DNA from: Chloroflexota bacterium
GTDB lineage: Bacteria; Chloroflexota; UBA5177; JANWHV01
DNA length: 14,505 bases
Direction: 5' to 3'
Assembly (NCBI GenBank): GCA_025450255.1
Contig: JANWHV010000165.1
Span: forward strand, 1-14,505
The translations under genes were made by a program, and so were the position numbers. The notes under the pieces were generated by a model. The model was not told where the DNA came from. It saw nothing but the letters and a program-made list of their open reading frames with translations, and did no database searches. Shown here piece by piece: positions 725 through 14,110 of the stretch (positions are counted from its first letter, which is position 1; each line of letters opens with the position of its first letter).

Positions 725-804
725 GCCGCGGCCCACACCCGGCCGCAGCCGGCGTGTTCCTGCCATCCGGCCGCAGCCGGAGGCTTGTACGCTATGTACC
801 ACAT
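721..804 (-). other. Possible 27-codon leader ORF overlapping the aldolase start
   Basis: An ATG at 804, two bases after the rhaI stop, opens 27 codons that end in TGA at 723-721. That TGA overlaps the ATG of the downstream aldolase (ATGA). The arrangement could couple aldolase translation to ribosomes leaving rhaI, which would explain the lack of a Shine-Dalgarno site at the aldolase. The leader itself has poor ribosome-binding spacing and no recognisable peptide, so it may be chance. Confidence 0.2.
739..780. repeat. Two direct copies of a 14-bp hairpin-forming repeat
   Basis: CCGGCCGCAGCCGG occurs exactly at 739-752 and 767-780, 28 bp apart, in the short gap between rhaI and the aldolase gene. 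Each copy can fold as a 5-bp CCGGC/GCCGG stem with a 4-base loop, so the RNA leaving rhaI would carry two small GC hairpins. There is no U-tract, so this does not look like an intrinsic terminator. It could be a processing or stability element, or a short dispersed repeat of this genome. Confidence 0.6.
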
Positions 805-806
805 CC

Positions 807-2048
807 CTACCAGCCCATGGCGCTGCCGCCGGCGCGTTCGCGCTCGATTGTGGCCTGGTAGCCGCTCCGCGTGTATTCCGCTAGCGGATCGGCGGCGGCG
901 CCCATCTCCAGGCGGGTCTGGGCCAGCAACGGGCGCGCGTCGGTCTCATAGGCGTCCATCAGCACCCGGTGCGCCGACACCACGTCGCCCGCTTGCTGCG
1001 CGGCGCGGAGAGTGGGCCGGTCCACCAGCAATGCCCTGGCGTAGGCGGCCTGGCAGTTAAGGACGCTGTGCAGCATGGCCGGGATCTTCTGCTCCACGTT
1101 GTGGCACTGGTCGAGCATATAGGCGACATTTCGGGCCGTGCCGGCCACGGCGCCGTCGGCATCCTCCTCGGCGGCGGCTAACTCGTTGTATATAAGGAAG
1201 AGCTCGAGTGGATTGGTGGTACCCACCATGAGGTCGTCGTCGGCGTACTTGCGCCCGTTGAAGTGGAAGCCGCCCAGGCGCCCGTCCGCCAGCAGCACGG
1301 CGACAATTTGCTCAATGTTCACGCCCTGGGCATGATGCCCCAGATCCACCAGCACCTGCGCCTGGGCGCCGAGGCGCGCGCAGAGCATATAGGCCGTGCC
1401 CCAGTCCGGCAGATCGGTGGAGTAGAATGAAGGCTCGAAGAATTTGTATTCGATCAACATGCGCATGCTGGGATCCATGGCGGCGTAACACTGGTCGAAG
1501 GACTCGAACAGCCGCTTCCGGCGATCGCGCAGGTCATCCTGGCCGGCATAATTGGTGCCGTCGGCCAGCCACATGGAGATCAGGGTTGAGCCGGTCTCGC
1601 GGGCCACGCCAATACACTCCTTGACGTGGTCGATCGCCTGGCGGCGGATGCCCGCATCGGGGTTGGCCAGGGAGCCAAATTTATACGCCTCGTCCTGGAA
1701 GAGATTGGGATTGATGGCGCCGATGCTCAGGCCGCGATCGGCGGCGTAGCGGCGCAGGGCCGTCCAATCGGCGACCTTGTCCCAGGGGATGTGCAGGGCG
1801 ACGGAGGGCGCGACGCCGGTGAGGCGGTGGACGAGCGCGGCATCGTCGAGCTTTTCCTCGACGCTGCGCGGCACGCCGGGCTGCGGAAAGACCTTGAAGC
1901 GCGTGCCGGAATTGGCGTAGCCCCAACTGGGTGTCTCGATGCGCTGGGCACGGAGCCGGCGCTTGATGTCCTCCAATTTCCGGCCCTGGGCGGCAACGCG
2001 TTCCTCGATGTAGGCGTAGCCGGCGGTCGTGGCCTGTGCGGTGGTCAT
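807..2048 (-). CDS. rhaI: L-rhamnose isomerase, rhizobial/Pseudomonas type
   Basis: This 413-residue enzyme interconverts L-rhamnose and L-rhamnulose in the cytoplasm, the first intracellular step of the phosphorylative route. It is an xylose-isomerase-like TIM barrel. The metal-site residues are all visible: Glu200 (LIEYKFFEP), Asp235 and His238 (VDLGHHAQG), His262 (GFHFNGRKY), Asp270 and Asp272 (ADDDLMVG) and Asp313 (LDQCHNVEQK). Their spacing matches the Pseudomonas stutzeri-type isomerase rather than E. coli RhaA. The ATG at 2048 follows a strong GGAGGAG ribosome-binding site. It lies 103 bp downstream of rhaD, and that gap contains a perfect palindrome and a small hairpin. Length and motifs look intact, and I see no sign of damage. 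Confidence 0.95.
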   Translation of the reverse strand: MTTAQATTAGYAYIEERVAAQGRKLEDIKRRLRAQRIETPSWGYANSGTRFKVFPQPGVPRSVEEKLDDAALVHRLTGVAPSVALHIPWDKVADWTALRRYAADRGLSIGAINPNLFQDEAYKFGSLANPDAGIRRQAIDHVKECIGVARETGSTLISMWLADGTNYAGQDDLRDRRKRLFESFDQCYAAMDPSMRMLIEYKFFEPSFYSTDLPDWGTAYMLCARLGAQAQVLVDLGHHAQGVNIEQIVAVLLADGRLGGFHFNGRKYADDDLMVGTTNPLELFLIYNELAAAEEDADGAVAGTARNVAYMLDQCHNVEQKIPAMLHSVLNCQAAYARALLVDRPTLRAAQQAGDVVSAHRVLMDAYETDARPLLAQTRLEMGAAADPLAEYTRSGYQATIERERAGGSAMGW

Positions 2049-2087
2049 GATTATCTCCTCCGCTCGACGACTATCGTTCTGAGGTTT

Positions 2088-2103
2088 CCGCGCATAGGCG
2101 CGG
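2088..2103 (-). other. Small GC hairpin in the rhaD-rhaI gap
   Basis: CCGCGC (2088-2093) and GCGCGG (2098-2103) pair perfectly around a 4-base loop. It lies about 40 bases before the rhaI start in the minus-strand transcript. No U-tract follows, so it is more likely an RNA processing or stability element than a terminator. Confidence 0.45.
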
Positions 2104-2122
2104 CGTCTGTCGCTTTATTCAC

Positions 2123-2137
2123 CACGGAGACTCCGTG
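2123..2137. promoter_or_regulatory. 15-bp perfect palindrome between rhaD and rhaI
   Basis: CACGGAG-A-CTCCGTG is a perfect 7-1-7 inverted repeat that starts 14 bases after the rhaD stop. The one-base centre fits a dimeric repressor site better than an RNA hairpin, though a 5-bp stem with a 5-base loop could form. It has the same 7-A-7 geometry as the palindrome upstream of deoR but a different sequence. Its role is unknown; it could be an internal operator controlling rhaI. Confidence 0.4.
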
Positions 2138-2151
2138 ATTCAATCTCATTC

Positions 2152-4227
2152 CTAGCGTGGGTACGCCGCGGCGACGCCGCCGTCCACGTTCAGGATATTG
2201 CCGGTGCTCTTCCCCGAACGCGCGTTCGAAGCGAAGTAGGCCACGGCCTCGGCGATGTCTTCCGGCAAAATGTTGACGCCGAGCGTGGAGCGCTTCCGGT
2301 AGTGCTCCTCGAGTTGCTCGGGCGCGATGCCGTAGGTGGCGGCGCGTTCCTGCCGCCAGGCGCTGCCCCAGATGCGCGATCCGGAGAGCACGGCGTCTGG
2401 ATTGACGGTGTTCACGCGGATACCCAGATTGCCGCCTTCCTCGGCCAGGCAGCGTGCCAGGTGCAGCTCGGCTGCCTTGGCGGTGGAGTAGGCGGCGGCG
2501 TTCTTCCCGGCCACCAGGGCATTTTTGGAGGCGACGAAGACCAGGCAGCCGCCCAGTCTCTGGTCCTTGAGCGTCTTGAACGCCTCGCGCGCTACCAGAA
2601 AGTAGCCGGTGGCCAGCACGCCGATGTTCTTGTTCCATTCGGCCAGGGTCGTTTCGGTGATCGAAGCGGAGGATGCCAGGCCGGCGTTGTTCACCGCGAT
2701 GTCGATGCCGCCGAAGGCAAGCGCGGCGGCGGCGAAGGCAGCCTGTACGCCCGCTTCATCCGTGACGTCCATGCCGATACCAATGGCCCGGCCGGCGCCG
2801 TGGCGCGTGTTGAGGTCCGCGGCGAGCCGCCGTGCCCCTTCCAGGTCGATATCGGCGGCCACGATATGGGCGCCGTCGCGGGCCAGCCGGTCGCAGATCG
2901 CGGAGCCGATGCCGCCGGCGGCGCCGGTGACCAGGGCAATATGGCGGGCAAGCTCTTTCTCGGGCGGCGCCAGCTTCAGCTTGTACTGCTCGAGCGGCCA
3001 GTATTCCACGGCGTAGCTTTCCGCGTCGGTGAGCGAGACGAAGCCGCCGCACACTTCGGCGCCGCGCATCACGGCCACCGCCCGGTGATACAACTGGGCG
3101 GAAACGCCGGCGTTGGCGGCGTCTTTCCCCGTGGTGATCATGCCCACGCCGGGGATCAAGATCACGCGCGGCGCGGGGTCGGCGGCCGCATCGGCTTCGC
3201 GATGGACCGGCGTGCCGGCATCAGGATCGAGATCCTCGCCCGCGTTGTCCTGCAAGTAGCGCTCGTATGTGGCGATGTAGGTTTCAACGCCGTCATGCAG
3301 GGCATTGGGCAGCGCATCGACGCCATGTTCGGGCAGCCAATCCACCAGCAGCGGCCAGGGCTTGGTGTGTACCAGATGGTCGGGGCAGGCGGCGCCGATC
3401 GCGGTGAGACGCGGCGCGTCCACGCTGGAGGCGAACTCCAGCACGTCGTCGCTATCCTCGAAGCGGAGGATTGGCTTCCGCTGCCCGGCCATGAGGCCGC
3501 GAATAATCGGCATGACCGCGGCGGCGATGGCCTGGCGATCGGGGGCGGGCGTGGCGCGCGCGCCGCCGAAGACGGGCGCCTGGTAGCGGCGGGCCACAAA
3601 CTGGCGGGCGCGGCCAACCATCTCCATGGTGGCGGCGTAACATTCGTCGTCGCTCTCGCCCCAATTGATCAGGCCGTGCTTCGCCAGAATCACCAGGCGG
3701 GCGTTTGGACGCGCGCGCACCGCCAGCGCCACGTCGCGGGCCAGCCCGAAGCCAGGGCGCTTGTAGGGGATCCAGACAAGCTCGTCGCCGTAGATCTGGC
3801 GGGCCAGGCGCTCACCGGCGGCCGCGCAGGCCAGGAAGTTGGTGGCGTCGGCGTGGGTGTGATCGATGTGGGTAAAGGGAAGGAAGGCGTGGAGAAGTGT
3901 TTCGATCGAGGGGCGTGGCCGCCCCGGCTCGAAGAAACAGTGGGCGAGATAGGCCACCATGTCCACGTCGCTCATGCGCTCGCGCTCGATCAGCGGCACG
4001 ATATCCTCAAGATAGAGGCCGGTGAACGAGGCTTCGGTGACGGTCGCCAGGTCGGAGCCGGAGCCTTTCACCCAGAGCACCCGCGCCTCGCGGCCGCGGA
4101 AATCGGTTTCGACCGATTTGACGGAGGTGTTGCCTCCGCCCCAGTTGCAGACCGAGCGATCGGCGCCCAGGCGTCGTGACCGCGCGACCAGTTGAGCGAG
4201 CAAGGATGCGGGCGCCGGGGTCGTCAT
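2152..4227 (-). CDS. rhaD: Bifunctional rhamnulose-1-phosphate aldolase / lactaldehyde dehydrogenase
   Basis: This 691-residue fusion has two enzyme domains. The N-terminal class II aldolase (about 1-420) shows NWGGGNTSVK (28-37), GSGSDLA (55-61), Glu109 in SIETLLHAF, His123/His125 in DHTHADATN and His184 in AKHGLINWG. It cleaves L-rhamnulose-1-phosphate to DHAP and L-lactaldehyde. The C-terminal SDR (about 428-691) has TGAAGGIG (434-441), NNAG (513-516), Ser567 and Tyr580/Lys584 in YSTAK, and oxidises lactaldehyde, so the product is passed within one polypeptide. The same architecture is found in RhaD of rhizobia and RhaEW of Bacillus. ATG 4227 follows AGAGGA and lies 15 bp after the deoR stop, so the two genes are cotranscribed. 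The long plus-strand frame opposite this gene is a compositional shadow. Confidence 0.95.
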   Translation of the reverse strand: MTTPAPASLLAQLVARSRRLGADRSVCNWGGGNTSVKSVETDFRGREARVLWVKGSGSDLATVTEASFTGLYLEDIVPLIERERMSDVDMVAYLAHCFFEPGRPRPSIETLLHAFLPFTHIDHTHADATNFLACAAAGERLARQIYGDELVWIPYKRPGFGLARDVALAVRARPNARLVILAKHGLINWGESDDECYAATMEMVGRARQFVARRYQAPVFGGARATPAPDRQAIAAAVMPIIRGLMAGQRKPILRFEDSDDVLEFASSVDAPRLTAIGAACPDHLVHTKPWPLLVDWLPEHGVDALPNALHDGVETYIATYERYLQDNAGEDLDPDAGTPVHREADAAADPAPRVILIPGVGMITTGKDAANAGVSAQLYHRAVAVMRGAEVCGGFVSLTDAESYAVEYWPLEQYKLKLAPPEKELARHIALVTGAAGGIGSAICDRLARDGAHIVAADIDLEGARRLAADLNTRHGAGRAIGIGMDVTDEAGVQAAFAAAALAFGGIDIAVNNAGLASSASITETTLAEWNKNIGVLATGYFLVAREAFKTLKDQRLGGCLVFVASKNALVAGKNAAAYSTAKAAELHLARCLAEEGGNLGIRVNTVNPDAVLSGSRIWGSAWRQERAATYGIAPEQLEEHYRKRSTLGVNILPEDIAEAVAYFASNARSGKSTGNILNVDGGVAAAYPR

Positions 4228-4242
4228 GCCGATATGTCCTCT

Positions 4243-5037
4243 CTATACGATCTTCAGTTCCGCCGCGGGCGGCTCCGCGACGACGACCTCCACGCCGCAC
4301 TGGCGCAGGGCATCGACCGCCTCAGGGTCGGCCTCCCAATCCGTAATCAGGATGCGCGCGCAGCTTACTGGGGCGAACTGCACCAGGGCCGTTTTGCCAA
4401 GCTTGCTCGAATCAATCAGGGCAATCACGCGGCTGGATTTAGCCACCACCAGCTCTTTGAGCTGCGCCTCATAGGGGTTTGCCTCGGTGAGGCCATGCAC
4501 GGCACTGCAGCCTTTGGCGGAGATCACCGCGGTGTCCACGAACAGGCGGCGCAGCGTGGCCTCGGCGAGCGGGCCCGCGAACGAGAGCGAGGTGTGGCGG
4601 AGCGTTCCGCCAAGGAACGTCACGTTGATGTCATGGCGCCGGCCAAGCTCGTAGCCGATAGGGAGCGCGTTGACCACCGCCGTACCCTGAAAGTCAAGGG
4701 GCAACAGGCGCGCCAGGTGCAGGACGGTGCTGGAGGCATCGAACATGATAGTCTGCCCGCGATCGACAAGCGCCAGGGCGGCATGGGCAATCGCTTCCTT
4801 TTGCGGTCGGTAGGCTTCCTCGCGGGTATGAAACGCCAGCTCGGGACCGTGCTCGCCGCTGCGCGCCACCGCGCCGCCGTAGGTGCGGCGGAGCAGCCCC
4901 TGGTCCTCGAGCGATTGCAGGTCGCGGCGGATCGTTTGGCCGGAGACGGCGAAGCGGCGCGCCAGGGCATCCACGGAGAAGACATCCTGCTCCTCGAGGA
5001 GGTCGATCAATGCCAACCGCCGTTCCGCCGCGATCAT
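4243..5037 (-). CDS. DeoR-family transcriptional repressor of the rhamnose operon
   Basis: The protein has 264 residues and heads the unit with rhaD and rhaI. The winged helix-turn-helix covers about 4-58, with the DeoR signature VSVDALARRFAVSGQTIRRD and the wing RRTYGGA. The C-terminal DeoRC sensor domain shows FDASSTVLHLARLL (99-112), FLGGTLR (141-147) and DSSKLGKTALV (209-219), motifs that bind a sugar phosphate or related intermediate. A GTG at 5061 would add eight residues, but ATG 5037 is preceded by AGGAAGG at good spacing and is preferred. In Rhizobium leguminosarum a DeoR-type RhaR represses rhamnose genes, so a local repressor role is the simplest reading. Likely operators are the palindrome at 5069-5083 and the repeats upstream of the promoter. 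Confidence 0.9.
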   Translation of the reverse strand: MIAAERRLALIDLLEEQDVFSVDALARRFAVSGQTIRRDLQSLEDQGLLRRTYGGAVARSGEHGPELAFHTREEAYRPQKEAIAHAALALVDRGQTIMFDASSTVLHLARLLPLDFQGTAVVNALPIGYELGRRHDINVTFLGGTLRHTSLSFAGPLAEATLRRLFVDTAVISAKGCSAVHGLTEANPYEAQLKELVVAKSSRVIALIDSSKLGKTALVQFAPVSCARILITDWEADPEAVDALRQCGVEVVVAEPPAAELKIV

Positions 5038-5068
5038 CGTGGTTGCCTTCCTCGCGCCCACGCCGTGC

Positions 5069-5083
5069 TTGTAGTAACTACAA
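5069..5083. promoter_or_regulatory. Perfect 15-bp palindrome upstream of deoR, candidate operator
   Basis: TTGTAGT-A-ACTACAA is a perfect 7-1-7 inverted repeat lying 31 bases upstream of the preferred deoR ATG and downstream of the predicted transcription start. It is AT-rich in a GC-rich neighbourhood. A repressor bound here would block the first transcribed bases, which fits autorepression by DeoR. Confidence 0.6.
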
Positions 5084-5097
5084 CATGGCGCTGGACG

Positions 5098-5120
5098 ATA
5101 GCTGGTCTGATCGTAGCTAT
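5098..5120. promoter_or_regulatory. Inverted repeat ATAGCT-N11-AGCTAT over the deoR -10 region
   Basis: Two 6-bp arms (5098-5103 and 5115-5120) enclose the -10 hexamer and the likely start site of the deoR promoter. Position and symmetry suit a repressor site. The interior contains CTGGTCT, which also occurs in the GntR-type operator near 14096, but the other half does not match. Confidence 0.35.
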
Positions 5121-5138
5121 TACGGGACGGTTCGTCAA
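5110..5138 (-). promoter_or_regulatory. Sigma70-like promoter for deoR-rhaD-rhaI
   Basis: On the minus strand TTGACG (5138-5133) is followed after exactly 17 bp by TACGAT (5115-5110). The -35 lies inside the 11-mer GTTGACGAACC, which recurs unchanged at two other promoters in the window. A start near 5103 would give a leader of about 65 bases carrying the 5069-5083 palindrome. Confidence 0.6.
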
Positions 5139-5151
5139 CGAATAATGATAC

Positions 5152-5180
5152 ATTGTGTTGTTTTCTGTGGTATTGTGTTG
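5152..5180. repeat. Direct repeat ATTGTGTTG, 20-bp period, upstream of the deoR promoter
   Basis: ATTGTGTTG occurs at 5152-5160 and 5172-5180 (CAACACAAT on the transcribed strand). The period is 20 bp, so the two copies face nearly the same side of the helix. They begin 13 bases upstream of the -35 box. Similar ATTGnTGTTG repeats sit in the same place upstream of the promoter at 14322-14350, which suggests a shared regulator. Confidence 0.5.
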
Positions 5181-5220
5181 AGGCAAGGTCGGGTATCGCG
5201 ATGCGCCGATCGTCGCATGC

Positions 5221-5538
5221 TCAACCCTCGAAGTAAAACATCTCGGGCAACGCGGGCACGAAGCCGGTCTTGGGGTCGGTTTCGGCGAGCAGGATGTCGC
5301 TCATCATCGCCGCCCAGCGGGCGTTCGCCGGATCGGCGACGATCGCGGCAAGCGTGGCCCGCACATTCTCCGACTCGAAAAAGGCGAAGAGCGTCGTCCC
5401 GTCACGGTGAATGCTGTAGCGCCGGAATCCCGCCTTTCGCAGCGCCTCGACCATCTCCGGCCAGATCTCGTCGTGGCGCCGTAGATATTCGGCCTCGGCG
5501 CCGGGCCGGACGTTCATTCTAAAGGCCATCCGCTCCAC
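5221..5538 (-). CDS. rhaM: L-rhamnose mutarotase
   Basis: This 105-residue protein equilibrates the alpha and beta anomers of L-rhamnose and feeds the isomerase. It aligns along its length with E. coli YiiL/RhaM: an AFRMNVRPG start, the catalytic-type His22 in YLRRHDEIWPEM, Tyr41 in RRYSIHRDG, Trp75 in ANARWAAMMSDI and the closing LPEMFYF. The start is GTG at 5538, because AGGAGGA lies six bases upstream; the internal ATG at 5529 would be too far from it. The gene follows the DapA-family remnant and the MBL-fold gene, and it probably ends the unit that begins with the GntR regulator. Downstream is the deoR promoter region. Confidence 0.93.
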   Translation of the reverse strand: MERMAFRMNVRPGAEAEYLRRHDEIWPEMVEALRKAGFRRYSIHRDGTTLFAFFESENVRATLAAIVADPANARWAAMMSDILLAETDPKTGFVPALPEMFYFEG

Positions 5539-5563
5539 GATTCGTCCTCCTATTCGCTACCGT

Positions 5564-5674
5564 GCCGCCGCCGGCAAGCACATGCCCGACCAGCATTGCC
5601 GGATTGGCCGTGTCGATTCCATCGTCCTCGTCAAATTGCGTGGATAGCATCGGCCACACGCCGGTGAGAGCCAC
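5564..5674 (-). pseudogene. N-terminal remnant of a DapA/KDG-aldolase-family gene
   Basis: Between the MBL-fold gene and rhaM, the minus strand reads GTG at 5674, then VALTGVWPMLSTQFDEDDGID followed by a stretch ending MLVGHVLAGGG. This matches the first strand and helix of dihydrodipicolinate-synthase-family proteins, whose usual start is of the form GVxPAxxTPFxxDGxID, then LVxHxLAGG. About 37 codons are recognisable. The frame then enters the rhaM ribosome-binding site and stops near 5519, so about 250 residues, including the Schiff-base lysine, are absent. The TP of the usual TPF motif reads TQ here. Members of this family include 2-keto-3-deoxy-sugar-acid aldolases, which would suit the oxidative route encoded upstream. 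The call rests on motif resemblance over a short stretch. Confidence 0.55.
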
Positions 5675-5678
5675 TCGA

Positions 5679-6467
5679 TCAGGCAATGACGCCTCCAGGG
5701 TGACGCTCGAGTACGGCCGGATCGTACAACGGTACCTGGATTTGGGCCTGAGCACGCGCCTTTTCGTAGGCGGTTACACACTCCTCATAGCTCTCCATGA
5801 TCCCGATTGGGTGGTTGTTCTCCACGTTTTGGTAGCGGAAGAAACAATCGGAGACGGCAACGGTGCCCTTCGGCGTATCGACGCAGACCAGCAGCGAGCT
5901 GCGATGGTGGCAGCCGGCCCACACCGTGCGCAGTCCGGGCACGATTTCCTCATCGCCGACAAGGCGCACGCGATCCCAGGCGTCGGTGACCAGGTGCGCG
6001 AGGATGCGGTCGGGGATCTCCATCTTACGCGGCTGATGGCCGGGATATCGCGGCAGGTGAAACTCCTGCCAGCCGCGTCGTGAGAGCACGATTCGCGCCT
6101 TGGGGAAGCGATCGATATTTCCCGTGGCGTAGGCCTGAAAGGGCGTGATGATAACGTGGGTGACCTGGTCCGGCGAGATGCCGAGACCGGCAAGGGCCGT
6201 GAGCGGCTGCTCGTCATCCGCCACGCGCAACTGCGTGCGCTCGCCGCCGAAACCGAACCACTGCTCATTCATCCAGGCAAGCTCGTCTGGTGGCGGGCCA
6301 GTATTGACGATCGCCGTCACACCGGGCGCCTGCAGCACGGCCATGTAAAATACCAGCGGTTCCCATTGGTCGTCTCGCAGGTTTCCCATCCAGTACAGCT
6401 CGGCGCCGGGCGCGCCCGCCATGCGGCCTACAACTTTCACGCGCGCCGAGAACGGTCCTATCGCCAT
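5679..6467 (-). CDS. MBL-fold protein (lactonase-like) with erased metal site
   Basis: The 262-residue protein follows the layout of lactonase-type metallo-beta-lactamase proteins, including ITHVIIT-like and GN.D.FPKARIVLSRRGW segments. The ligands are changed. The HxHxDH box is replaced by P109-F-Q111-A-Y113-A114, the GH of the second motif is GC (G185, C186), and the final GHDP is LYDP (247-250). Only Asp207 (VSDCFF) remains, with His187 and His188 close to the second motif. The surrounding fold residues are well kept, so this looks like selection for a non-hydrolytic or metal-independent role, not decay. ATG 6467 follows GGAGAG, 12 bp after the SDR stop. In an oxidative rhamnose operon this is the slot of the rhamnonolactonase, but activity is unproven. 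Confidence 0.8.
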   Translation of the reverse strand: MAIGPFSARVKVVGRMAGAPGAELYWMGNLRDDQWEPLVFYMAVLQAPGVTAIVNTGPPPDELAWMNEQWFGFGGERTQLRVADDEQPLTALAGLGISPDQVTHVIITPFQAYATGNIDRFPKARIVLSRRGWQEFHLPRYPGHQPRKMEIPDRILAHLVTDAWDRVRLVGDEEIVPGLRTVWAGCHHRSSLLVCVDTPKGTVAVSDCFFRYQNVENNHPIGIMESYEECVTAYEKARAQAQIQVPLYDPAVLERHPGGVIA

Positions 6468-6479
6468 GCCATCTCTCCT

Positions 6480-7247
6480 CTAGAGGTGCTTTACAAACTC
6501 ACCGCCATCGACGAGCAATGTGGCGCCGGTCACGTAACGCGCGAGATCCGAGGCGAAAAAGACGACCGCGCTCGCCACTTCGTCCGGCATGCCAAGCCTA
6601 CCCAGGCAGGTTTGCACTTCCAGGTTACGCCGGTTTTCGGGAACGGTCAGATATTCCTTGTTGAGATCGGTTTCGATGGTGCCGGGCAGCACGGAGTTAC
6701 AGGTAATCCCTTGAGGGCCGAGGCTGACGGCCAGAGAAGCCATCAAGGCGATCAATCCCGCTTTGGTCGGCCCATAGTGCGCCTGCACCGTACCACCCTT
6801 GATGGCCGAAATAGAGCTGATGGCGATAATCCGCCCCCCAGTCTGGCCGCGCAGCATCAAGCGGGCCGCCTCCTGGCTGCAAAAGAAGGCGCCCTTGAGG
6901 TTGACGTCCTGCACCCGCTCCCAGAGTGCCTCGGAGATCTCCAGAAACGGCGCCATCGGGCAGATGCCGGCATTATTTACCAGGATATCCAGGCCGCCAA
7001 AGGCTGTGTCCGTCTCGGCGAACATGGTCCGGACCTCGGCTTGCCGGCTGATGTCGGCCCGGACGATCAGTGCTTGCCCACCGGCTGCCTGGATTTCGGC
7101 AACGGTGTCCGCCGCCGCCGATTCTTCGTCCGCACTCGGATAGTTGACGGCGATACGGGCGCCCTCACGCGCCAGGGCTACCGCGCAGGCGCGTCCGATG
7201 CCGCGCGAGGCGCCCGTGACCAGCGCGCGCTTACCAAAAAGGAGCAT
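6480..7247 (-). CDS. Short-chain dehydrogenase, probable L-rhamnose 1-dehydrogenase
   Basis: This 255-residue classical SDR has the cofactor loop TGASRGIG (11-18), NNAG (91-94), Ser145 in ISSISA and the catalytic Tyr158-x3-Lys162 in HYGPTKAG. It ends with the usual YVTGATLLVDGG. No acidic residue follows the second strand (VNYPSADEE), which leaves the choice of NAD or NADP open. The start is ATG 7247, one base after the dehydratase stop (TAGGATG), with GAGGGAG upstream; longer frames starting further up only overlap the dehydratase gene. Next to a rhamnonate-dehydratase-like enzyme, the best role is oxidation of L-rhamnose to rhamnonolactone. A keto-deoxy-rhamnonate dehydrogenase is an alternative. 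The family is certain; the substrate is inferred. Confidence 0.85.
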   Translation of the reverse strand: MLLFGKRALVTGASRGIGRACAVALAREGARIAVNYPSADEESAAADTVAEIQAAGGQALIVRADISRQAEVRTMFAETDTAFGGLDILVNNAGICPMAPFLEISEALWERVQDVNLKGAFFCSQEAARLMLRGQTGGRIIAISSISAIKGGTVQAHYGPTKAGLIALMASLAVSLGPQGITCNSVLPGTIETDLNKEYLTVPENRRNLEVQTCLGRLGMPDEVASAVVFFASDLARYVTGATLLVDGGEFVKHL

Positions 7248-7248
7248 C

Positions 7249-8424
7249 CTACGCTCCCTCGTAGAGCAGATTGCTGATTTCCGCTTCGTCCAGCTCGACT
7301 CCCAGGCCGGGGCCACTTGGCGGCTCGATAAAGCCGTCCCTGGCCTCCGGCTCCCCTTTGAAGACGCGCCAGAACAGCTCATTGCCGGTATCGGGCTCCA
7401 CGCGCGGGAAGTATTCGGCGATTGGCGATCCAAAGTTGGCGGCGATCAGATGAAGGTTGTGCGCCTCGTTGGAATGCGGCACGACCGGGATGTCGGCGGC
7501 GGCGGCCAGCGCGTACACCTTTCGCGCCTCGGTGATCCCGCCGACCCGGTTCGTGTCGGGCTGCAGTATGTTGGCGCAGCGGCGATCGATCAACTCTTTA
7601 AAACCGTAACGCGTGTACTCGTGCTCGCCCATTGAAATGAGGATTGGCGATTCACGCACCAGCTTGCTGTAGCCGTCCAGCTCATCGGGCATCAGCGGCT
7701 CCTCGATCCAGCGCAGATCGAATTCCCGCAGTCGCTTGGCCATCTCCAGGGTGTAGGCAACGTTCCAGCCCATGTAGGCGTCGGCCATCAGATCGATCTC
7801 GTCGCCGATTGCCGCGCGAACTCGGCGCACTAGCTCGACATTCCGCTTCATGCCCGCCGTGCCGTGTTGCGGTCCAAAGCCAAAGCGCTGCTTCAGGGCG
7901 CGAAAGCCCTGCCGTACCCAGCCGCGCGCCTCTTCCTGCAGCGCGTCGAGATCCTCGAGCGCGTAGAGGCGGCTCGCGTAGACCGGGATACGCTCCTTGG
8001 TCTTGCCGCCCAGCAGGTTGTAGATTGGCTGACCCAACGATTTGCCGACAATGTCCCACAGGGCGATGTCGATAGCACTGATCGCCGCCACCACGGCCCC
8101 CTTGCGTCCGAAGCGCACGGTCGAGCGATACATCTTGTGCCAGAGCAGCTCGGTGTTGAACGGGTCCTCGCCCACGATCATCATCGCCAGGTGCTGATCG
8201 ATCACCGTCTTCGGCACGCCGGTGAAGCCGCCCGCGCTTCCGATGCCGGTGATGCCTGTATCGGTGAACACCTCGACCAGTACCAGGCTGACCGGCCCCC
8301 ACCATTCAGTGCCTCGCAGCTCGTGGTCAGGGAATATCGTGGTAGGTGAGACGAGATTGCTCTTCAAGGTAGCGGGCTGGCGCGACCACTTCAATGCGCG
8401 TGTGCGCACGCCTGTAATCTTCAT
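7249..8424 (-). CDS. Enolase-superfamily dehydratase, L-rhamnonate dehydratase-like
   Basis: The 391-residue protein has the mandelate racemase/enolase fold: an N-terminal capping domain (1-about 125) and a barrel. Visible active-site elements are K178-x-R180 (ALKQRFGFG), the metal ligands Asp215 (LMADAYMGW), Glu241 (WIEEP) and Glu267 (SMGEHEY), Asp290 in LQPDTNRVGG and His317 in VVPHSNEAH. The stretch GMKRNVELVRRVR...DLMADAYMGW and the GEHEYTRYGF motif are typical of rhamnonate-dehydratase-like proteins, which convert L-rhamnonate to 2-keto-3-deoxy-L-rhamnonate. Its ATG overlaps the GntR stop (ATGA), so the two are translationally coupled. Another six-carbon aldonate dehydratase remains possible. 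Confidence 0.85.
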   Translation of the reverse strand: MKITGVRTRALKWSRQPATLKSNLVSPTTIFPDHELRGTEWWGPVSLVLVEVFTDTGITGIGSAGGFTGVPKTVIDQHLAMMIVGEDPFNTELLWHKMYRSTVRFGRKGAVVAAISAIDIALWDIVGKSLGQPIYNLLGGKTKERIPVYASRLYALEDLDALQEEARGWVRQGFRALKQRFGFGPQHGTAGMKRNVELVRRVRAAIGDEIDLMADAYMGWNVAYTLEMAKRLREFDLRWIEEPLMPDELDGYSKLVRESPILISMGEHEYTRYGFKELIDRRCANILQPDTNRVGGITEARKVYALAAAADIPVVPHSNEAHNLHLIAANFGSPIAEYFPRVEPDTGNELFWRVFKGEPEARDGFIEPPSGPGLGVELDEAEISNLLYEGA

Positions 8425-9167
8425 CGCTTGGTGCCTCCGTCGGCAAGATCGTCGAAAACGGGTAGCCTTTCACGCCGATCTCGCGCCAGCTCCTGGCGGA
8501 TCAGCGCCTCCACGTCGTCGAGATGAACGTCCATCGCGCCGCGCGCCGCGTCGGCGTCCCCTTCCTCGATCGCCCGCAGGATGCGGAGATGAAACGCCAG
8601 GGCCTTTTCGGCGGCGGCGGGCGTACGTGAGGTAATCTCCAAGTTGCGGATCAGCAGGTCGCGAATTGAACGCAGCATGCGCGCGAACACCGGGTTCCCC
8701 GCCGCGCCGGCAACAAGCTCGTGAAACCCGATATCGAGAGCGATGATTGCGCCGCCCATCGTCACGGCGTCACGCATGGCGTCCAGATTGGCGGCAAGAG
8801 CGGCGAGGTCTTCCGCGGTACGGCGGCGCGCCGCCAGCCCAGCCAGCGCCGTCTCGGCGATCCGCCGTACTTCCACGGCATGCAACATATCGACGTCGGC
8901 CATGTGCCCGGCAATGATCGAGAAATCCGTCGATACCAGGTGGTCGGGATGAAAGCTGTTCACAAAGGCGCCGCTTCGTCGCCGGATCTCAATTATTCTG
9001 CTTCGCTCCAGGCCGCGAAGGGCCTCGCGCACCGCCGGTCGGCCCACGCCAAAACGGATCGCCAGAACCCGTTCAGAGGGTAGGCGTTGGCCTGGCCGCA
9101 CTTCGCCTCCCCGGATCAAATCCGCGATCTTCTCCCTGACCGGTATCAATGGCGGGGACGTTCCCAT
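8421..9167 (-). CDS. GntR-family regulator with FCD domain
   Basis: The 248-residue regulator has an N-terminal winged helix (about 8-72; LPSERVLAIRFGVGRPAVREALRGLE, wing RRRSGAFV) and a helical FCD ligand domain. The FCD metal-binding residues are visible as Asp145-x3-His149, His193 and His215; the 22-residue gap between the last two is typical. Ligands of this class are usually small carboxylates, so rhamnonate or keto-deoxy-rhamnonate is a reasonable guess. ATG 9167 with GGGAGA upstream is preferred to ATG 9191, which has weak ribosome binding. It heads the oxidative-branch unit. FadR-like members bind TGGTNNNACCA, and two such sites lie in the transporter promoter, making that operon its probable target. 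Confidence 0.92.
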   Translation of the reverse strand: MGTSPPLIPVREKIADLIRGGEVRPGQRLPSERVLAIRFGVGRPAVREALRGLERSRIIEIRRRSGAFVNSFHPDHLVSTDFSIIAGHMADVDMLHAVEVRRIAETALAGLAARRRTAEDLAALAANLDAMRDAVTMGGAIIALDIGFHELVAGAAGNPVFARMLRSIRDLLIRNLEITSRTPAAAEKALAFHLRILRAIEEGDADAARGAMDVHLDDVEALIRQELARDRRERLPVFDDLADGGTKR

Positions 9168-9299
9168 GTGGTGGGTCTCCCGTGAGAGCATGCATCAAGG
9201 CGGCGAGGCACGCATCCTGCTGGACGTGTTTCGCCGGTGGTATGTACAGGAAAGACGAAGGCTATGATACGGTCCGGTAGCGCATTGGCTCGCTCCAGA
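9168..9299. other. Leader and upstream region of the gntR unit
   Basis: These 132 bp hold no gene. On the minus strand TATCAT (9269-9264) is a good -10 candidate, but no matching -35 box lies 16-18 bp upstream. No copy of GTTGACGAACC or TGGTNNNACCA is present. A half-like TGTACATACCA near 9240-9251 has the wrong spacing for a FadR site. How this unit is transcribed is not clear. Confidence 0.4.
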
Positions 9300-9369: not shown

Positions 9370-10386
9370 TTAGAACTTAAAGTTGTTGATATTCTTCGCC
9401 GTGAATGTGAGGAACGGACCGGCCGGCAGCGTGCCTGTCTTGTCGATAGTCACGGTGCCGAACTGTCCGGCCTTGAAGCTGGAGCCCGGCTTGGCGGGAA
9501 ACTTGTTGGCGATCATCTCGTGGAACAGATAGGTCGCGATGATCCCCTCGTTCGCCGGATCCCACAGTTGGAATGCTTTCACCGTGCCGTCGAGCACGTA
9601 TTGGCGCATCTGGCTGGGTAGGCCGAGGCCGGTTACGGACACCTGCTTCCCCATCTTCTTGTCGTCGATTACCTTTGCCGCGGAGCTAATGCCCACGGTG
9701 GTAGGCGACAAGATGCCCTTGAGCTTGGGGAAGGCGGCGAGCAGGGCATTGGTCTGGGTGGTGCTGGTGGCAGGGTCATCGTTGCCGTAGGCAATTTTGA
9801 CCATCTGCATTTTGGCGTAGATAGGCTTCTTGAGTTCTTGCTTCATGTAGCCGATCCACTCGTTCTGGTCGGGCGCGGTGGTGGTGGCGGAAAGGATTGC
9901 GAACTGGCCCGTGTAGTTGATCAGTTTGGCCATGAGCTGGATCTGGAGCCCGCCCGTTTTGGTGAAGTCAACCGGCAGGATGGTCGCGGCAGCGCCGCCG
10001 GCGCCGAGGGGGCCGTTCACGGCAAGCACCTTGATACCGCGGGACATGGCCTGCTTCAGGGCCGGCAGCACGGCGTTCGCGTCGTTGGCCGAGATGGCGA
10101 TGGCGCATACGTGCTGCGCGATGGCGGTATTGATGTAGGGAATCTGCAAGGTGCCGCCGGCGGAGGACGGCGCTTCCGTTTTAAACGAATAGCCGAACTT
10201 GCCGACCGTGCTTTTGAAGCCCTTGATGATCGAATCAAAGTACGGGTTGCCGGTGTTCTTCGGTATGTACTCGATGACGCAGCCGGCATGAGCCTTGTTC
10301 GTCGCGTGTACCAGGCTTGTGGCCGGCAAAGCCGCGGCTGAAGCGACCACCAGCGCCATTGCCCCACGGGCAACAATGCCTTTCAT
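9370..10386 (-). CDS. rhaS: Periplasmic rhamnose-binding protein of the ABC transporter
   Basis: The 338-residue protein begins with a signal peptide (MKGIVARG, a hydrophobic core at about 9-25, probable cleavage after VHA at 28 or AHA at 34). Cys36 follows AHAG, a poor lipobox. The mature part is a Peripla_BP_4 sugar-binding domain: YIPKNTGNPYFDSIIKGF (40-57), AILSATTTAPDQNEWI (163-178), the ELKKPIYAKM segment (184-193), LSPTTVGIS (226-234) and VTGLGLPSQMRQYV (251-264), closely following RhaS of rhizobial rhamnose transporters. The WDSD-like sugar-contact strand expected near 122-126 reads AVNGP, which may alter ligand contacts. ATG 10386 follows GAAAGG. The gene is last in the transporter operon, 38 bp after the second permease. 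Confidence 0.9.
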   Translation of the reverse strand: MKGIVARGAMALVVASAAALPATSLVHATNKAHAGCVIEYIPKNTGNPYFDSIIKGFKSTVGKFGYSFKTEAPSSAGGTLQIPYINTAIAQHVCAIAISANDANAVLPALKQAMSRGIKVLAVNGPLGAGGAAATILPVDFTKTGGLQIQLMAKLINYTGQFAILSATTTAPDQNEWIGYMKQELKKPIYAKMQMVKIAYGNDDPATSTTQTNALLAAFPKLKGILSPTTVGISSAAKVIDDKKMGKQVSVTGLGLPSQMRQYVLDGTVKAFQLWDPANEGIIATYLFHEMIANKFPAKPGSSFKAGQFGTVTIDKTGTLPAGPFLTFTAKNINNFKF

Positions 10387-10424: not shown

Positions 10425-11495
10425 CTACGCTTCCTGAGTTTGTGACGCGGATTCCGGCTCTTCCCTCCCTTCTTGCACGGCATGCGCGGCCGCGGAAGCC
10501 TGCATGGTTACAATGTCGGACGGCTTTGGAGAGAATTTCAGATAGAGGCGCCCTAGCAGATGGGGCAGGAGGATGGACAATACCAGCATGGCGCCGATCG
10601 CGGCTTGCTGGCTCTGGCCCGAGAGGTTGTCGAGACCCATACCCCACTGCAGCGAGCCGATGGCGAAGACCGCGAGGACCGTTCCCACAATGCTGCCGCT
10701 GCCGCCAAATATACTGGCGCCGCCAAGCAACACCGCCGTAATGATTGCCAGCTCATCGCCGCTGGCGAGATCGGAGCGGACACTGCCGAAACGCGATATG
10801 AACATTATCGCTCCAATGGCCGACGCGAATCCGGACAGCGTAAAAATGACCACCGTAACGCGGTCCACGTGTACGCCGGAAAAGCGCGCGGCGTCACGAT
10901 TGGTGCCGATCATATAGGCCTGGCGTCCAAGCACCGTGAAGTGCAACAAGACGCCGAATGCCAGAGCGAGGCCAAGAAATATGAGGAGCGACACCGGAAT
11001 GAGCGTGTTGCCCAGGTACTGCAGGTTGATGCCCACGAAGTTGCCCGGAAAGTCCGAGATTGAGTTTGAGCCCAGCAGGGCGCTGGCCAGGCCCGAATAC
11101 AGCGACCGCGTGCCAAGAGTGACGACGAGCGACGAGATCTTAAATCGTGTGACCAGCAGACCGTTGATGGCGCCGAGCGCCGAGCCGAACAGCAGCGCGA
11201 CGATCGTGCAGAGCCAGATTGGCAACCCCGCGTCGTTCAGCTTCCCGAAAACACCGGCCGTAAGCACCACCATCGACGCGACCGATATGTCCACCTCGCC
11301 GGCGGCGATCACCATGGTCATCGCCAGCGCGATAATCCCGTCCTCCATGAAGTTGGTAGGCATGGTGGAGAGATTGGTGGAGTCGATAAAATACGGAGAC
11401 AATTGGCTGCTGACGATCAAGACGATGATGAGCACCAGCACGGTGCCCCACTCCCGATGCCCGAACAGCGCGCGCCAGAGCGAACTTCGCCTCAT
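10425..11495 (-). CDS. rhaQ: Rhamnose ABC transporter permease (second subunit)
   Basis: This 356-residue membrane protein of the BPD_transp_2 (ribose/xylose-type) family has about eight to ten hydrophobic segments from residue 17 to about 312. The conserved AGEVDISVAS (65-74) and the cytoplasmic coupling region AINGLLVTRFKISSLVVTLGT (109-129) are clear, as is ILLGGASIFGG-like AVLLGGASIFGGSGS late in the protein. A hydrophilic tail of about 40 residues, rich in Glu, Gln and Ala, closes it. Its ATG overlaps the stop of the preceding permease by ATGA, so synthesis of the two is coupled. It would form a heterodimeric channel with RhaP. Naming follows the rhamnose context; the two permeases could be swapped in name. 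Confidence 0.88.
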   Translation of the reverse strand: MRRSSLWRALFGHREWGTVLVLIIVLIVSSQLSPYFIDSTNLSTMPTNFMEDGIIALAMTMVIAAGEVDISVASMVVLTAGVFGKLNDAGLPIWLCTIVALLFGSALGAINGLLVTRFKISSLVVTLGTRSLYSGLASALLGSNSISDFPGNFVGINLQYLGNTLIPVSLLIFLGLALAFGVLLHFTVLGRQAYMIGTNRDAARFSGVHVDRVTVVIFTLSGFASAIGAIMFISRFGSVRSDLASGDELAIITAVLLGGASIFGGSGSIVGTVLAVFAIGSLQWGMGLDNLSGQSQQAAIGAMLVLSILLPHLLGRLYLKFSPKPSDIVTMQASAAAHAVQEGREEPESASQTQEA

Positions 11496-12499
11496 CGATG
11501 ACGCCTTGCCTGCTGGGCTATGACCGTGGCACGGCGGCGCAGCGCGCCGTCAACCACCACCGCGATCAGGATAGCGCTGCCGATGAACGCGTCATCCCAA
11601 TATGCCGAGACGTTGGTGATGTATAGACCGTTCGTGACCATTGCAAGCAGCAGCGCGCCTAAAACCGTGCCGAACTGGCGACCATAGCCGCCGAAGAGGC
11701 TGGCGCCGCCGATCACGACCGCGGCAACGGATCGCAGTTCCAACCCGACTCCCGCGTCGGCGGGATTGGCGGTGCCGAACTGGCCGATGTACATGATGCC
11801 CGCCAGACCCGCCAGGGCGCCGCTCGCGACAAACGCCCAGAATGTGGTCCATCCCGCCGGAATGCCGCGCAGCGACGCGGCGCGCGGATTGTCGCCCAAC
11901 GCGTAGCAGCGGCGCCCGAACCGGGTGAAGCGCAAGACGAACGCCATGATCGCGGAAACGACAAGCGCGATATACACGAGCCAGGCCACCGCGAGGTCGG
12001 CGTTCGATAACGACAGCAGCGATCGTGGAAGCTGGTTTGGATCGACCTGGACACTATTGCTAACCCAGTACGCAAGACCACGGTAGAGGCCGAGCGTGCC
12101 CAGAGTCGCCACGATCGACGGCACTTCGAAGAATGCGATAATGATGCCGTTTACCGCCCCCAGTAGGGCCCCTATGGCAATGCCCATCAAGAAAATGAAC
12201 GGCAATGGCAGCCCAGGGTGCTGGACCAGGAATGTGGCGGTGCCCATCACCGTGACCCCGACGATTGAGCCAACCGAAAGATCGACGTTCCGCGTGATTA
12301 CCACCAGCGTTTGTCCGGACGCCACCACGAGCACCACGGCCATGTCGGCTAAAATACCCTGAAAGTTCTGGGTCTGGAAGAAACGCGGCTCGATAGCGGT
12401 AAAGATGGCGACCACCGCCACCAGGAAGATGATGATTCCTGCCTCGCGGAAGCGCAGGACTATGTTGACGAGCTGATCGACGCCGAATTTACGTGTCAT
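11492..12499 (-). CDS. rhaP: Rhamnose ABC transporter permease (first subunit)
   Basis: This 335-residue inner-membrane permease is of the BPD_transp_2 family. Hydrophobic segments begin at about residue 20. RNVDLSVGS (70-78) and the coupling region GAVNGIIIAFFEVPSIVATLGT (114-135) match sugar permeases of the RbsC/XylH/RhaP group, and AVVIGGASLFGGYG lies near the end. The ATG overlaps the stop of the ATPase gene (ATGA), as does its own stop with rhaQ, so the three membrane and ATPase subunits are made in step. It ends in a basic, cytoplasmic RRHR tail. Confidence 0.88.
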   Translation of the reverse strand: MTRKFGVDQLVNIVLRFREAGIIIFLVAVVAIFTAIEPRFFQTQNFQGILADMAVVLVVASGQTLVVITRNVDLSVGSIVGVTVMGTATFLVQHPGLPLPFIFLMGIAIGALLGAVNGIIIAFFEVPSIVATLGTLGLYRGLAYWVSNSVQVDPNQLPRSLLSLSNADLAVAWLVYIALVVSAIMAFVLRFTRFGRRCYALGDNPRAASLRGIPAGWTTFWAFVASGALAGLAGIMYIGQFGTANPADAGVGLELRSVAAVVIGGASLFGGYGRQFGTVLGALLLAMVTNGLYITNVSAYWDDAFIGSAILIAVVVDGALRRRATVIAQQARRHR

Positions 12500-14037
12500 C
12501 CGGCGACCGCGCTCAAGCTTGCCGCGGCGACCACGGCCTCGGGCGTGGCGGTTTCGTGGGAGAAAGCGGAGACTATGCGGCCCTCGCGCATCACCAACAC
12601 GCGGTCGCTGACGCTGAGTAGCTCCGGCAGGTCCGACGAAATCATCAGTATGGCGACTCCCTGTTGCGCCAGTTCACCCATAATGCGGTGAATTTCTGCT
12701 TTGGCGCCCACGTCCACGCCGCGCGTCGGCTCGTCAAGGATCAGCACCTTGGGCGCTGTGGTCAACCACTTGGCGAATACCACTTTCTGCTGGTTGCCAC
12801 CGGAAAGCTCGCGCGGCGCCTGCTGCACGCCACGCGCCACCAGGCGCAGCGGCTGTGTATAGCGGATCGCCTGCGCGCGTTCCGCCGCGGGCCGCAGAAA
12901 GCCGCCGCGCGAGATCGCTCCCAGTCGGGGCAGCGCGATATTCTTGGCAATCGACACCGGAAGCAACAGGCCGTGCAGTTGTCGATCTTCCGGTACGTAG
13001 GCAATACCGTGGCGAATCGCGTCACGGCTTGAGCGGATGCGCGCCACTTTGCCGTTCACGCGAATGCTTCCCCGGTCGGCATGCCGCACGCCGAATATCG
13101 TCTCCGCGACCTCCGTCCGCCCGGCGCCCACCAGGCCGCCAAGGCCCACGATCTCACCGGCGCGCACCTCAAAATCGATATCGTTGAACTCACTCTTACG
13201 GCTGAGTTTTTCTACCGCGAGCACGACCGCGCCAGGCGTGGCGCGCTGGCGCTTGTACAGAGACGACGCTTCGCGCCCAACCATCAGCCGCACAAGCAAA
13301 TCCTCGGTAGCGCCGGCACTGGCAAGGGATTCCACTACCTGGCCGTCGCGCATCACCGTGATCCGGTCGCTGATCGCCAGCACTTCCTCGAGGCGATGGC
13401 CAATGAAGATAATGCCGACCCCTTTTCCGCGCAAGTCGCGGAGGACGCGGAAGAGGTCCCGCACTTCACTCGGCGTAAGCGACGCGGTGGGCTCATCGAC
13501 AATCAGGGCAGTCGGCTCGTCGGCTAGCGCGCTCACCATGTCGACCATCTGGCGCTCGGCCACGGAAAGCCCGCGCACGAGCGTCCTGGCATCCATGTGT
13601 TGGCCAATTGAATTGAGGAGCCGTTCGGTCTCGCGATACATGCGCGGCCAATCCATCACCGTGCCGGCTGGGCCACCTTTCAACTCACGGCCGGCAAAGA
13701 CGTTCGCGGCGATATCCAGCGAGGGAAATAGCGTAGGTTCCTGATGGATGATGCCGATACCGTGGCGCCGCGCGTCGAGCGGCGACGACATGGAGATTGG
13801 CGTGCCGCGATGGACGATGATGCCTGTATCCGGCCGCACTACGCCGCTCAGCATCCGCGCGACGGTAGACTTGCCGGCCCCGTTTTCGCCGATGATCGCA
13901 TGGATCTCGCCGGCTCTCAGCGTGAAGTTCACGTCACGGACGACTTTGATCGGGCCGTACCATTTCGAGACGCCCCGCGCCTCGAGGGCATCGCCGCGCG
14001 GAGCGTTTGCCGGGGCCGCCTGATTCTGAGTCGTCAT
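12496..14037 (-). CDS. rhaT: Rhamnose ABC transporter ATPase, two fused nucleotide-binding domains
   Basis: This is a 513-residue RbsA/XylG-type protein. Domain 1 has Walker A GENGAGKST (50-58), the variant signature LSVAERQM (157-164), Walker B ALIVDEPT (177-184) and His214. Domain 2 has the degenerate Walker A GLVGAGRTE (301-309) usual for this family, LSGGNQQK (411-418) and LILDEPTRGVDVGAK (432-446). It powers import through RhaP/RhaQ. A longer frame from 14094 is possible, but ATG 14037 follows GAAGGA and begins with the disordered MTTQNQAAPA typical of these proteins; the extra 57 bases belong to the leader just below the operator. The gene leads the transporter operon, whereas many related operons start with the binding-protein gene. 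The symbol follows the rhizobial rhaSTPQ scheme. Confidence 0.9.
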   Translation of the reverse strand: MTTQNQAAPANAPRGDALEARGVSKWYGPIKVVRDVNFTLRAGEIHAIIGENGAGKSTVARMLSGVVRPDTGIIVHRGTPISMSSPLDARRHGIGIIHQEPTLFPSLDIAANVFAGRELKGGPAGTVMDWPRMYRETERLLNSIGQHMDARTLVRGLSVAERQMVDMVSALADEPTALIVDEPTASLTPSEVRDLFRVLRDLRGKGVGIIFIGHRLEEVLAISDRITVMRDGQVVESLASAGATEDLLVRLMVGREASSLYKRQRATPGAVVLAVEKLSRKSEFNDIDFEVRAGEIVGLGGLVGAGRTEVAETIFGVRHADRGSIRVNGKVARIRSSRDAIRHGIAYVPEDRQLHGLLLPVSIAKNIALPRLGAISRGGFLRPAAERAQAIRYTQPLRLVARGVQQAPRELSGGNQQKVVFAKWLTTAPKVLILDEPTRGVDVGAKAEIHRIMGELAQQGVAILMISSDLPELLSVSDRVLVMREGRIVSAFSHETATPEAVVAAASLSAVAG

Positions 14038-14091
14038 CGACCGTCCTTCATCGCAACATCGCCGCAAAGCCTGGAATGGAGGCACGGCAGG

Positions 14092-14110
14092 CATCTGGTC
14101 TTACCAGATG
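14092..14110. promoter_or_regulatory. GntR/FadR-type operator, perfect palindrome
   Basis: CATCTGGT-CTT-ACCAGATG is an 8-3-8 perfect palindrome containing TGGTNNNACCA, the core bound by FadR-like GntR proteins. It covers about +1 to +20 of the proximal transporter promoter, a position where binding blocks transcription. The FCD-type GntR regulator encoded at 8421-9167 is the natural candidate to bind it. Confidence 0.7.

What the first reader, a model, noticed from the sequence alone, without database searches (positions are those of the whole stretch)
5679..6467. MBL-fold protein with its metal site replaced, sitting in the lactonase slot of an oxidative sugar operon
The fold-defining segments of a lactonase-type MBL protein are intact, yet the HxHxDH box is PxQxYA (109-114), the GH motif is GC (185-186) and the last GHDP motif is LYDP (247-250). 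Only Asp207 survives of the usual ligands. The frame is open, has a good ribosome-binding site and lies between conserved operon genes, so it looks maintained. It may be a pseudoenzyme, a ligand sensor, or an enzyme using a metal-free or rebuilt site. Loss of the ligands is seen directly; the function is inference.
Basis: partly seen in the sequence, partly recalled or inferred. Interest (0 to 1): 0.7.

Follow-up and report, generated by a model that had tools for sequence, protein, structure and literature searches.

The report
Lactonase-fold protein with rebuilt site
A protein shaped like a zinc enzyme that opens lactone rings has lost five of its seven metal-holding residues and carries a fixed new set instead; it belongs to a large bacterial family usually found near genes for oxidising sugars such as rhamnose, where it probably opens the sugar lactone with little or no metal.

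Summary
The minus-strand ORF at 5679-6467 (262 aa) has an AHL-lactonase-type MBL fold, but HxHxDH reads P109-F-Q111-A-Y113-A114 and the last His ligand is Y248. It is not decay: in 262 of 393 aligned rows (class set by P109 and Y113) Q111 is 259/262, H187, H188, D207 and F210 262/262, Y248 261/262. Another 130 rows keep HxHxDH (one HxRxDH) and one is HxHxNH. The rebuilt rows lie on one side of a single well-supported branch. Of 80 loci, 70 carry an SDR dehydrogenase (3 of 20 control stretches) and 64 at least one rhamnose-pathway-type gene (2 of 20). In one Sulfobacillus cluster every other step of the oxidative rhamnose route has a candidate gene and this protein is the only lactonase candidate. 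A canonical relative sits in the same slot of a similar Paenibacillus operon. Most likely it is a sugar-acid lactonase with a rebuilt, possibly metal-free site; chemistry and substrate are inferred. New variant of a known fold family.

The parts
5679..6467 (-). MBL-fold protein of the rebuilt-site family, 262 aa
6126..6143 (-). PFQAYA, residues 109-114, in place of HxHxDH
5904..5909 (-). H187-H188: kept His ligand plus the family-specific second His
5847..5849 (-). D207, the kept bridging Asp position (AiiA D191)
5724..5726 (-). Y248 in place of the last His ligand (AiiA H235)
6303..6305 (-). N55 in place of the Asp of the canonical DTG motif
6399..6401 (-). E23, rebuilt-family-specific acid in the N-terminal loop
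6480..7247 (-). SDR dehydrogenase; best NCBIfam hit L-rhamnose 1-dehydrogenase Lra1 (326.9 bits, cut-off 400); ends 12 nt before the MBL gene
7249..8424 (-). Enolase-superfamily sugar-acid dehydratase; best NCBIfam hit L-rhamnonate dehydratase (231.9 bits, cut-off 393)
5221..5538 (-). RhaM, L-rhamnose mutarotase (PF05336, above cut-off; TIGR02625 63.8 bits, cut-off 99.6)
8421..9191 (-). GntR/FCD regulator, overlapping the dehydratase gene by 4 nt
4243..5061 (-). DeoR-type regulator
2152..4227 (-). Bifunctional rhamnulose-1-phosphate aldolase/dehydrogenase (phosphorylative route)
807..2048 (-). L-rhamnose isomerase (TIGR02635, above cut-off)
9370..10386 (-). Rhamnose-type ABC substrate-binding protein (TIGR02637, 309.9 bits, cut-off 342.25)
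10425..14094 (-). Two permease genes and one ABC ATPase gene; named by position and by reading, not scanned against a library

Best explanation
[quoted passage not shown] RhaM and the SDR dehydrogenase turn rhamnose into rhamnonolactone; this protein opens the lactone; the enolase-type dehydratase takes the rhamnonate on. It descends from a dizinc AHL-lactonase-like MBL enzyme. The second metal site is gone (Asp, His, His became Tyr113, Ala114, Tyr248), and in the first only His187 and Asp207 remain beside Gln111. I propose that Asp207-His187 activates water, and that Tyr113, Tyr248, His188 and perhaps Glu23 polarise the carbonyl and protonate the leaving oxygen. Metal is either absent or a single weakly held ion at Gln111/His187/Asp207. 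Shown: the predicted fold, the replacements, their fixation, the single branch, the gene neighbourhood, and how rarely another known lactonase lies nearby. Inferred: activity, substrate, the role of each residue and the metal state.
For: Near all-or-none pattern: 262 rebuilt against 130 HxHxDH-type rows, one other; one branch, support 100. Of 80 loci, 70 have an SDR dehydrogenase (63 on the same strand within 4 kb), 38 an enolase-type dehydratase, 18 RhaM, 13 FAH, 13 GH78, 9 GH106, against 3, 2, 0, 0, 0, 0 of 20 control stretches. L056 reads GH78, rebuilt MBL, zinc ADH, FAH hydrolase, SDR, dehydratase, LutA-type, LutB-type, LUD protein; its dehydratase passes the L-rhamnonate dehydratase cut-off (625.9 against 393). 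L025 and L052 repeat MBL, ADH, FAH, SDR, dehydratase and add RhaM. An amidohydrolase-type lactonase lies in 1 of 80 loci (L027). Canonical relative L119 lies in a dehydratase-MBL-SDR-ADH operon and is named an N-acyl homoserine lactonase family protein by NCBI.
Against: No activity is known to me for any member. Five of seven metal ligands are gone, so hydrolysis needs new chemistry. 16 of 80 loci have none of the eight rhamnose-type markers tested; contig ends may explain some, but several (e.g. L011, L013, L049) show other dehydrogenase surroundings. L057, L058, L060 and L065 have SDR plus isomerase and aldolase genes but no dehydratase hit. L056's own genome holds a PF04909 amidohydrolase gene about 21.5 kb away on the same contig (G017), and L027 has one in the locus. 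Sugar lactones can open slowly on their own (passages of PMC13406643), so a pathway gap need not be filled by an enzyme. In the window itself the dehydrogenase and dehydratase calls are below NCBIfam cut-offs.
Confidence: 0.6

Rival explanations
1. Another enzyme of the same pathway: it interconverts lactone forms (1,5 to 1,4), or isomerises or mutarotates the sugar or a keto-deoxy acid, using the Tyr/His/Asp set without hydrolysis.
For: Loss of the dimetal site suits non-hydrolytic acid-base chemistry; association is strongest with the SDR dehydrogenase (70 of 80 loci against 38 with a dehydratase), so the ligand could be the sugar or the lactone.
Against: RhaM is also present in 18 of 80 loci; the canonical relative in the same slot keeps the hydrolase site; the L056 cluster would then lack a lactonase.
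Confidence: 0.2
2. A pseudoenzyme or ligand sensor that binds the lactone or acid and acts on a regulator or neighbouring enzyme.
For: Most catalytic metal ligands are lost; a GntR-type gene is in 14 of 80 loci and an IclR-type gene in 18, against 1 and 0 of 20 controls. The MBL-fold regulator PqsE may be a precedent (PMC12077149, search listing only).
Against: The type of regulator varies between loci while the pocket residues stay fixed; several new polar residues are invariant or nearly so (E23, Q111, Y113, H188, E225, Y248), which suits catalysis; Pfam shows no further domain in the window protein.
Confidence: 0.15
3. A decayed canonical lactonase on its way out.
For: Loss of canonical ligands.
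Against: The same replacements in 262 rows, from loci titled with seven phyla, intact frame in a packed operon, one old branch.
Confidence: 0.02

Closest known systems
AHL lactonases of the MBL superfamily (AiiA, GcL, 8x78 from Pseudomonas poae)
   Different: Five of seven metal ligands replaced; the DTG Asp is Asn; about 13-20% identity.
'N-acyl homoserine lactonase family protein' of Paenibacillus lignilyticus (P0175/L119)
   Same: Sequence relative; same dehydratase-MBL-SDR-ADH slot.
   Different: Complete canonical HxHxDH, His, Asp, His site.
P0202/P0204, unnamed canonical relatives
   Same: Share the VPGP N-terminal loop and C-terminal motifs; join the rebuilt branch in the tree at a fork of support 91.
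   Different: Keep HLHYDH and the His at 248.
COG3618/Amidohydro_2 sugar lactonases
   Same: L-fucono-1,5-lactonase of Burkholderia multivorans does the matching step for fucose (passages and reference list of PMC13406643); that bacterial and fungal rhamnonolactonases (named in PMC3870299) are of this type is recalled.
   Different: Another fold; found in 1 of the 80 loci.

Membership tests
AHL-lactonase-type MBL (structural family) | MBL alpha-beta-beta-alpha fold with lactonase architecture | tested here: met
   predicted model
AHL-lactonase-type MBL (structural family) | HxHxDH motif | tested here: not met
   window reads PFQAYA; Q111 in 259 of 262 and Ala/Thr/Ser at 114 in 262 of 262 rebuilt rows, a class that P109 and Y113 define
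AHL-lactonase-type MBL (structural family) | Third His ligand, bridging Asp and last His all present | tested here: not met
   H187 and D207 present in 262 of 262; last His is Tyr in 261 of 262, one gap
AHL-lactonase-type MBL (structural family) | NCBIfam or Pfam curated cut-off passed | tested here: not met
   window: AttM model 32.8 bits against 390; Lactamase_B 21.3 against 22.7. Of 34 members of A1, 13 match Lactamase_B at E <= 0.001 (cut-off not shown for each), 22 the AttM and 21 the AiiA model, best E 8.4e-12
AHL-lactonase-type MBL (structural family) | Dizinc content and lactone hydrolysis | not testable with these tools
   needs purified protein
COG3618 amidohydrolase sugar lactonases | Amidohydro_2 domain | tested here: not met
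   no PF04909 hit in the window protein
Lactonase of the oxidative rhamnose pathway (by role) | Gene linked to rhamnose/SDR dehydrogenase and sugar-acid dehydratase | tested here: met
   in the window; in the family SDR in 70 and dehydratase in 38 of 80 loci
Lactonase of the oxidative rhamnose pathway (by role) | Hydrolyses L-rhamnonolactone | not testable with these tools
   needs an assay

The most novel reading that the evidence does not exclude
A whole, cross-phylum family of MBL-fold enzymes that dropped the dimetal machinery and hydrolyses sugar lactones without any metal, using a rebuilt Tyr-Tyr-His-His-Asp(-Gln/Glu) site: a metal-free catalytic solution on a metallohydrolase fold.
Probability: 0.4. 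Interest if true: 0.78.

Novelty: new variant of a known kind. Interest (0 to 1): 0.6.

Why it matters
The MBL superfamily is known by its metal site. A family that exchanged that site on one branch, while keeping the fold and probably the pathway position, would be a clean case of how a metallohydrolase can become metal-free or change chemistry. It also offers a gene for the missing lactonase step in many soil bacteria, and it warns that names such as metal-dependent hydrolase or AHL lactonase are probably wrong for its members.

Tried and rejected
Decay: rejected, because the pattern is fixed. GH to GC: rejected as a register slip. Another lactonase hidden in the operons: a local amidohydrolase profile (21 rows, built from proteins fetched) hit 1 of 80 loci and 0 of 20 controls. 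PF04909, PF08450 and PF10282 were also searched in 40 whole genomes and compared by eye with the gene's position: no listed hit lies within 20 kb on the same contig. The nearest are an amidohydrolase about 21.5 kb away in G017, the genome of L056, and an SGL protein about 23.6 kb away in G004. The lists were cut short; for G019 and G025 no PF04909 hit was listed although each has some. Host organism: not identified; no genome is held for the window. Literature: no paper on this family turned up in eight answered searches of an open-licence library that lacks most subscription journals. Patchiness: 20 of 200 genomes of the class of G004 and 2 of 197 of the class of G016 have a match at E <= 1e-60; 5 of 200 of the class of G001 at E <= 1e-20, of which only G001 itself is rebuilt and four are canonical. 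These counts include the seed genomes.

Limits of counts: one search found 246 and one search found 1120 proteins, 120 listed each (174 different together, all rebuilt). One search, seeded with canonical L119, found 765, 120 listed: 118 canonical, one HxHxNH, one rebuilt (worked out from the totals). So 262:130 is not a natural ratio and rare intermediates may be unlisted. In one search, 120 stretches encoded a relative and 80 were kept; some come from one genome (L006 with L038, L027 with L041), many are bins, and many are cut by contig ends. The 393 rows include the window and duplicates (P0001 is nearly the window; P0038 equals L004; L115 repeats part of L039). The 130 canonical rows were set by H109 and D113; one has Arg at 111, two have Glu at 207 and a few have gaps. 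The tree used 156 of 393 rows: the window, the 86 rebuilt rows cut from loci, P0002-P0004, 20 random rebuilt database rows, the 12 canonical rows cut from loci and 35 random canonical-side database rows, less one canonical-side row dropped by the length filter; quick method, long branches. Neighbour labels are best hits by sequence similarity (E <= 1e-8), so 'dehydratase' and 'SDR' mean the superfamily type. The 20 control stretches come from 10 of the same genomes and are rich in actinomycetes.

Full report
Gene and operon. The ORF at 5679-6467 is on the minus strand, 262 aa, with an ATG at 6467 and AGGAG just upstream. In transcription order the packed block reads GntR regulator (8421-9191), enolase-type dehydratase (7249-8424), SDR dehydrogenase (6480-7247), the MBL protein, RhaM (5221-5538), DeoR regulator, bifunctional rhamnulose-1-phosphate aldolase/dehydrogenase and rhamnose isomerase; a rhamnose-type ABC importer lies upstream. 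So genes of an oxidative and of a phosphorylative rhamnose route share one strand. The dehydrogenase and dehydratase names are best hits below NCBIfam cut-offs (326.9 against 400; 231.9 against 393). The two permeases and the ATPase were named by reading only.

A family, not an accident. One search found 246 homologues (120 listed); in the alignment of the window with 119 of these, P109, Y113, H187, H188, D207 and Y248 are 120 of 120 and Q111 is 118 of 120. With two further searches and 98 proteins cut from loci, 393 rows fall into 262 rebuilt, 130 HxHxDH-type and one HxHxNH (P0217). Class was set by positions 109 and 113 only; the other positions follow it: position 55 is Asn in 257 of 262 against Asp in 129 of 130; 111 Gln in 259 against His in 129; 188 His in 262 against Thr/Ser in 124; 248 Tyr in 261 against His in 129. 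Further rebuilt-specific residues are E23, W26, N67, W70, R147, R189 and E225, while N117, G185, H187, D207, N214 and D249 are shared. In a tree of 156 rows the rebuilt type is one side of one branch (support 100, length 1.35; quick method, long branches). P0202 and P0204 carry the family's VPGP loop with an intact HLHYDH, so the loop may have come first and the site change later; that order is inference.

Neighbourhood. One search gave 80 loci; by my reading of the titles 29 are Acidobacteriota, 24 Actinomycetota, 17 Bacillota, 4 Ignavibacteriota, 3 Chloroflexota, 2 Burkholderiales bins and 1 Rokubacteria bin. Many are metagenome bins, so single phylum labels may be wrong (one Actinomycetota record is titled Bifidobacterium breve). 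Presence in the 80 loci against 20 control stretches: SDR 70 and 3; dehydratase 38 and 2; RhaM 18 and 0; zinc ADH 34 and 0; FAH 13 and 0; GH78 13 and 0; GH106 9 and 0; LutA 13 and 0; LutB 12 and 0; GntR 14 and 1; IclR 18 and 0; ABC ATPase 15 and 5. 64 of 80 have at least one of eight rhamnose-type markers against 2 of 20; 16 have none. The clearest cluster is L056 (a Sulfobacillus benefaciens MAG): GH78 rhamnosidase, rebuilt MBL, zinc ADH, FAH-family protein (best NCBIfam hit 2,4-didehydro-3-deoxy-L-rhamnonate hydrolase, 228 bits, cut-off 500), SDR (best hit Lra1, 346.2 against 400), dehydratase (L-rhamnonate dehydratase, 625.9 against 393, passed), then LutA-type (CCG domain), LutB-type (TIGR00273, 409.9 against 444.8) and LUD-domain genes. 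Read as rhamnose to lactone, acid, keto-deoxy acid, diketo acid, then lactate and pyruvate (the route and the role of the zinc ADH are recalled or inferred), every step has a candidate gene except the lactonase, and the MBL is the only candidate seen in the cluster. L025 and L052 repeat the MBL-ADH-FAH-SDR-dehydratase order and add RhaM. Against this reading, the L057/L058/L060/L065 group has SDR, isomerase and aldolase genes but no dehydratase hit.

Rival lactonases. A local amidohydrolase profile hit 1 of 80 loci (L027) and 0 of 20 controls. PF04909, SGL and 7-bladed lactonase families occur in 39, 35 and 31 of the 40 genomes searched, but no listed hit lies within 20 kb of the gene on its contig; the nearest is an amidohydrolase about 21.5 kb away in L056's own genome (positions of the gene; lists of 24 and 28 cut short). 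So a lactonase elsewhere in the genome is not excluded. In Paenibacillus lignilyticus one locus has the rebuilt protein beside a dehydratase (L002) and another has a canonical relative in a dehydratase-MBL-SDR-ADH order (L119). So the two forms fill like slots and may serve different sugars.

Mechanism. Loss of Asp, His, His at metal site 2 and Pro/Gln at site 1 makes a normal dizinc centre very unlikely. H187, D207 and Q111 could hold one ion weakly, or none. Two invariant Tyr and a second His stand where, or beside where, the metal ligands were. I propose Asp-His water activation with Tyr/His acid help. Metal-independent sugar lactonase activity has a precedent in 6-phosphogluconolactonase, and L-fucono-1,4-lactone hydrolyses slowly on its own, so an enzyme would be useful (passages of PMC13406643).

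Verdict. The finding is real and larger than described: a fixed, rebuilt MBL site in the lactonase slot, spread over many bacterial lineages. Function is inferred. Interest 0.6.

Noticed in passing
window 2-802, minus: Open frame running off the window start; its reading (MNDTLLDLCHALGAPPRRYAILGEGNVSLR...) looks like a second class II aldolase and could be the missing keto-deoxy-acid aldolase. Recognised by eye only.
   Followed up: no
window 807-8424: Isomerase/aldolase (phosphorylative) and dehydrogenase/dehydratase (oxidative) rhamnose genes lie in one same-strand block with two regulators; L038 shows the same mixture, while L057/L058/L060/L065 have isomerase, aldolase and SDR without a dehydratase hit.
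   Followed up: partly
L034 4035-7969; also L007, L013, L017, L062: Rebuilt MBL genes near pyruvate-dehydrogenase-like E1/E2 genes plus SDRs in Chloroflexota and Ignavibacteriota (names by eye); the cleavage step may differ there.
   Followed up: no
L039 7123-8771: Two rebuilt-type MBL genes in tandem beside an aminotransferase-like gene (by eye).
   Followed up: no
P0217: A relative with HxHxNH, the only row of 393 that is neither HxHxDH-type nor rebuilt.
   Followed up: partly
L060: Record titled Bifidobacterium breve, but its protein groups with those of L057, L058 and L065 on very short branches; possibly a mislabelled MAG.
   Followed up: no
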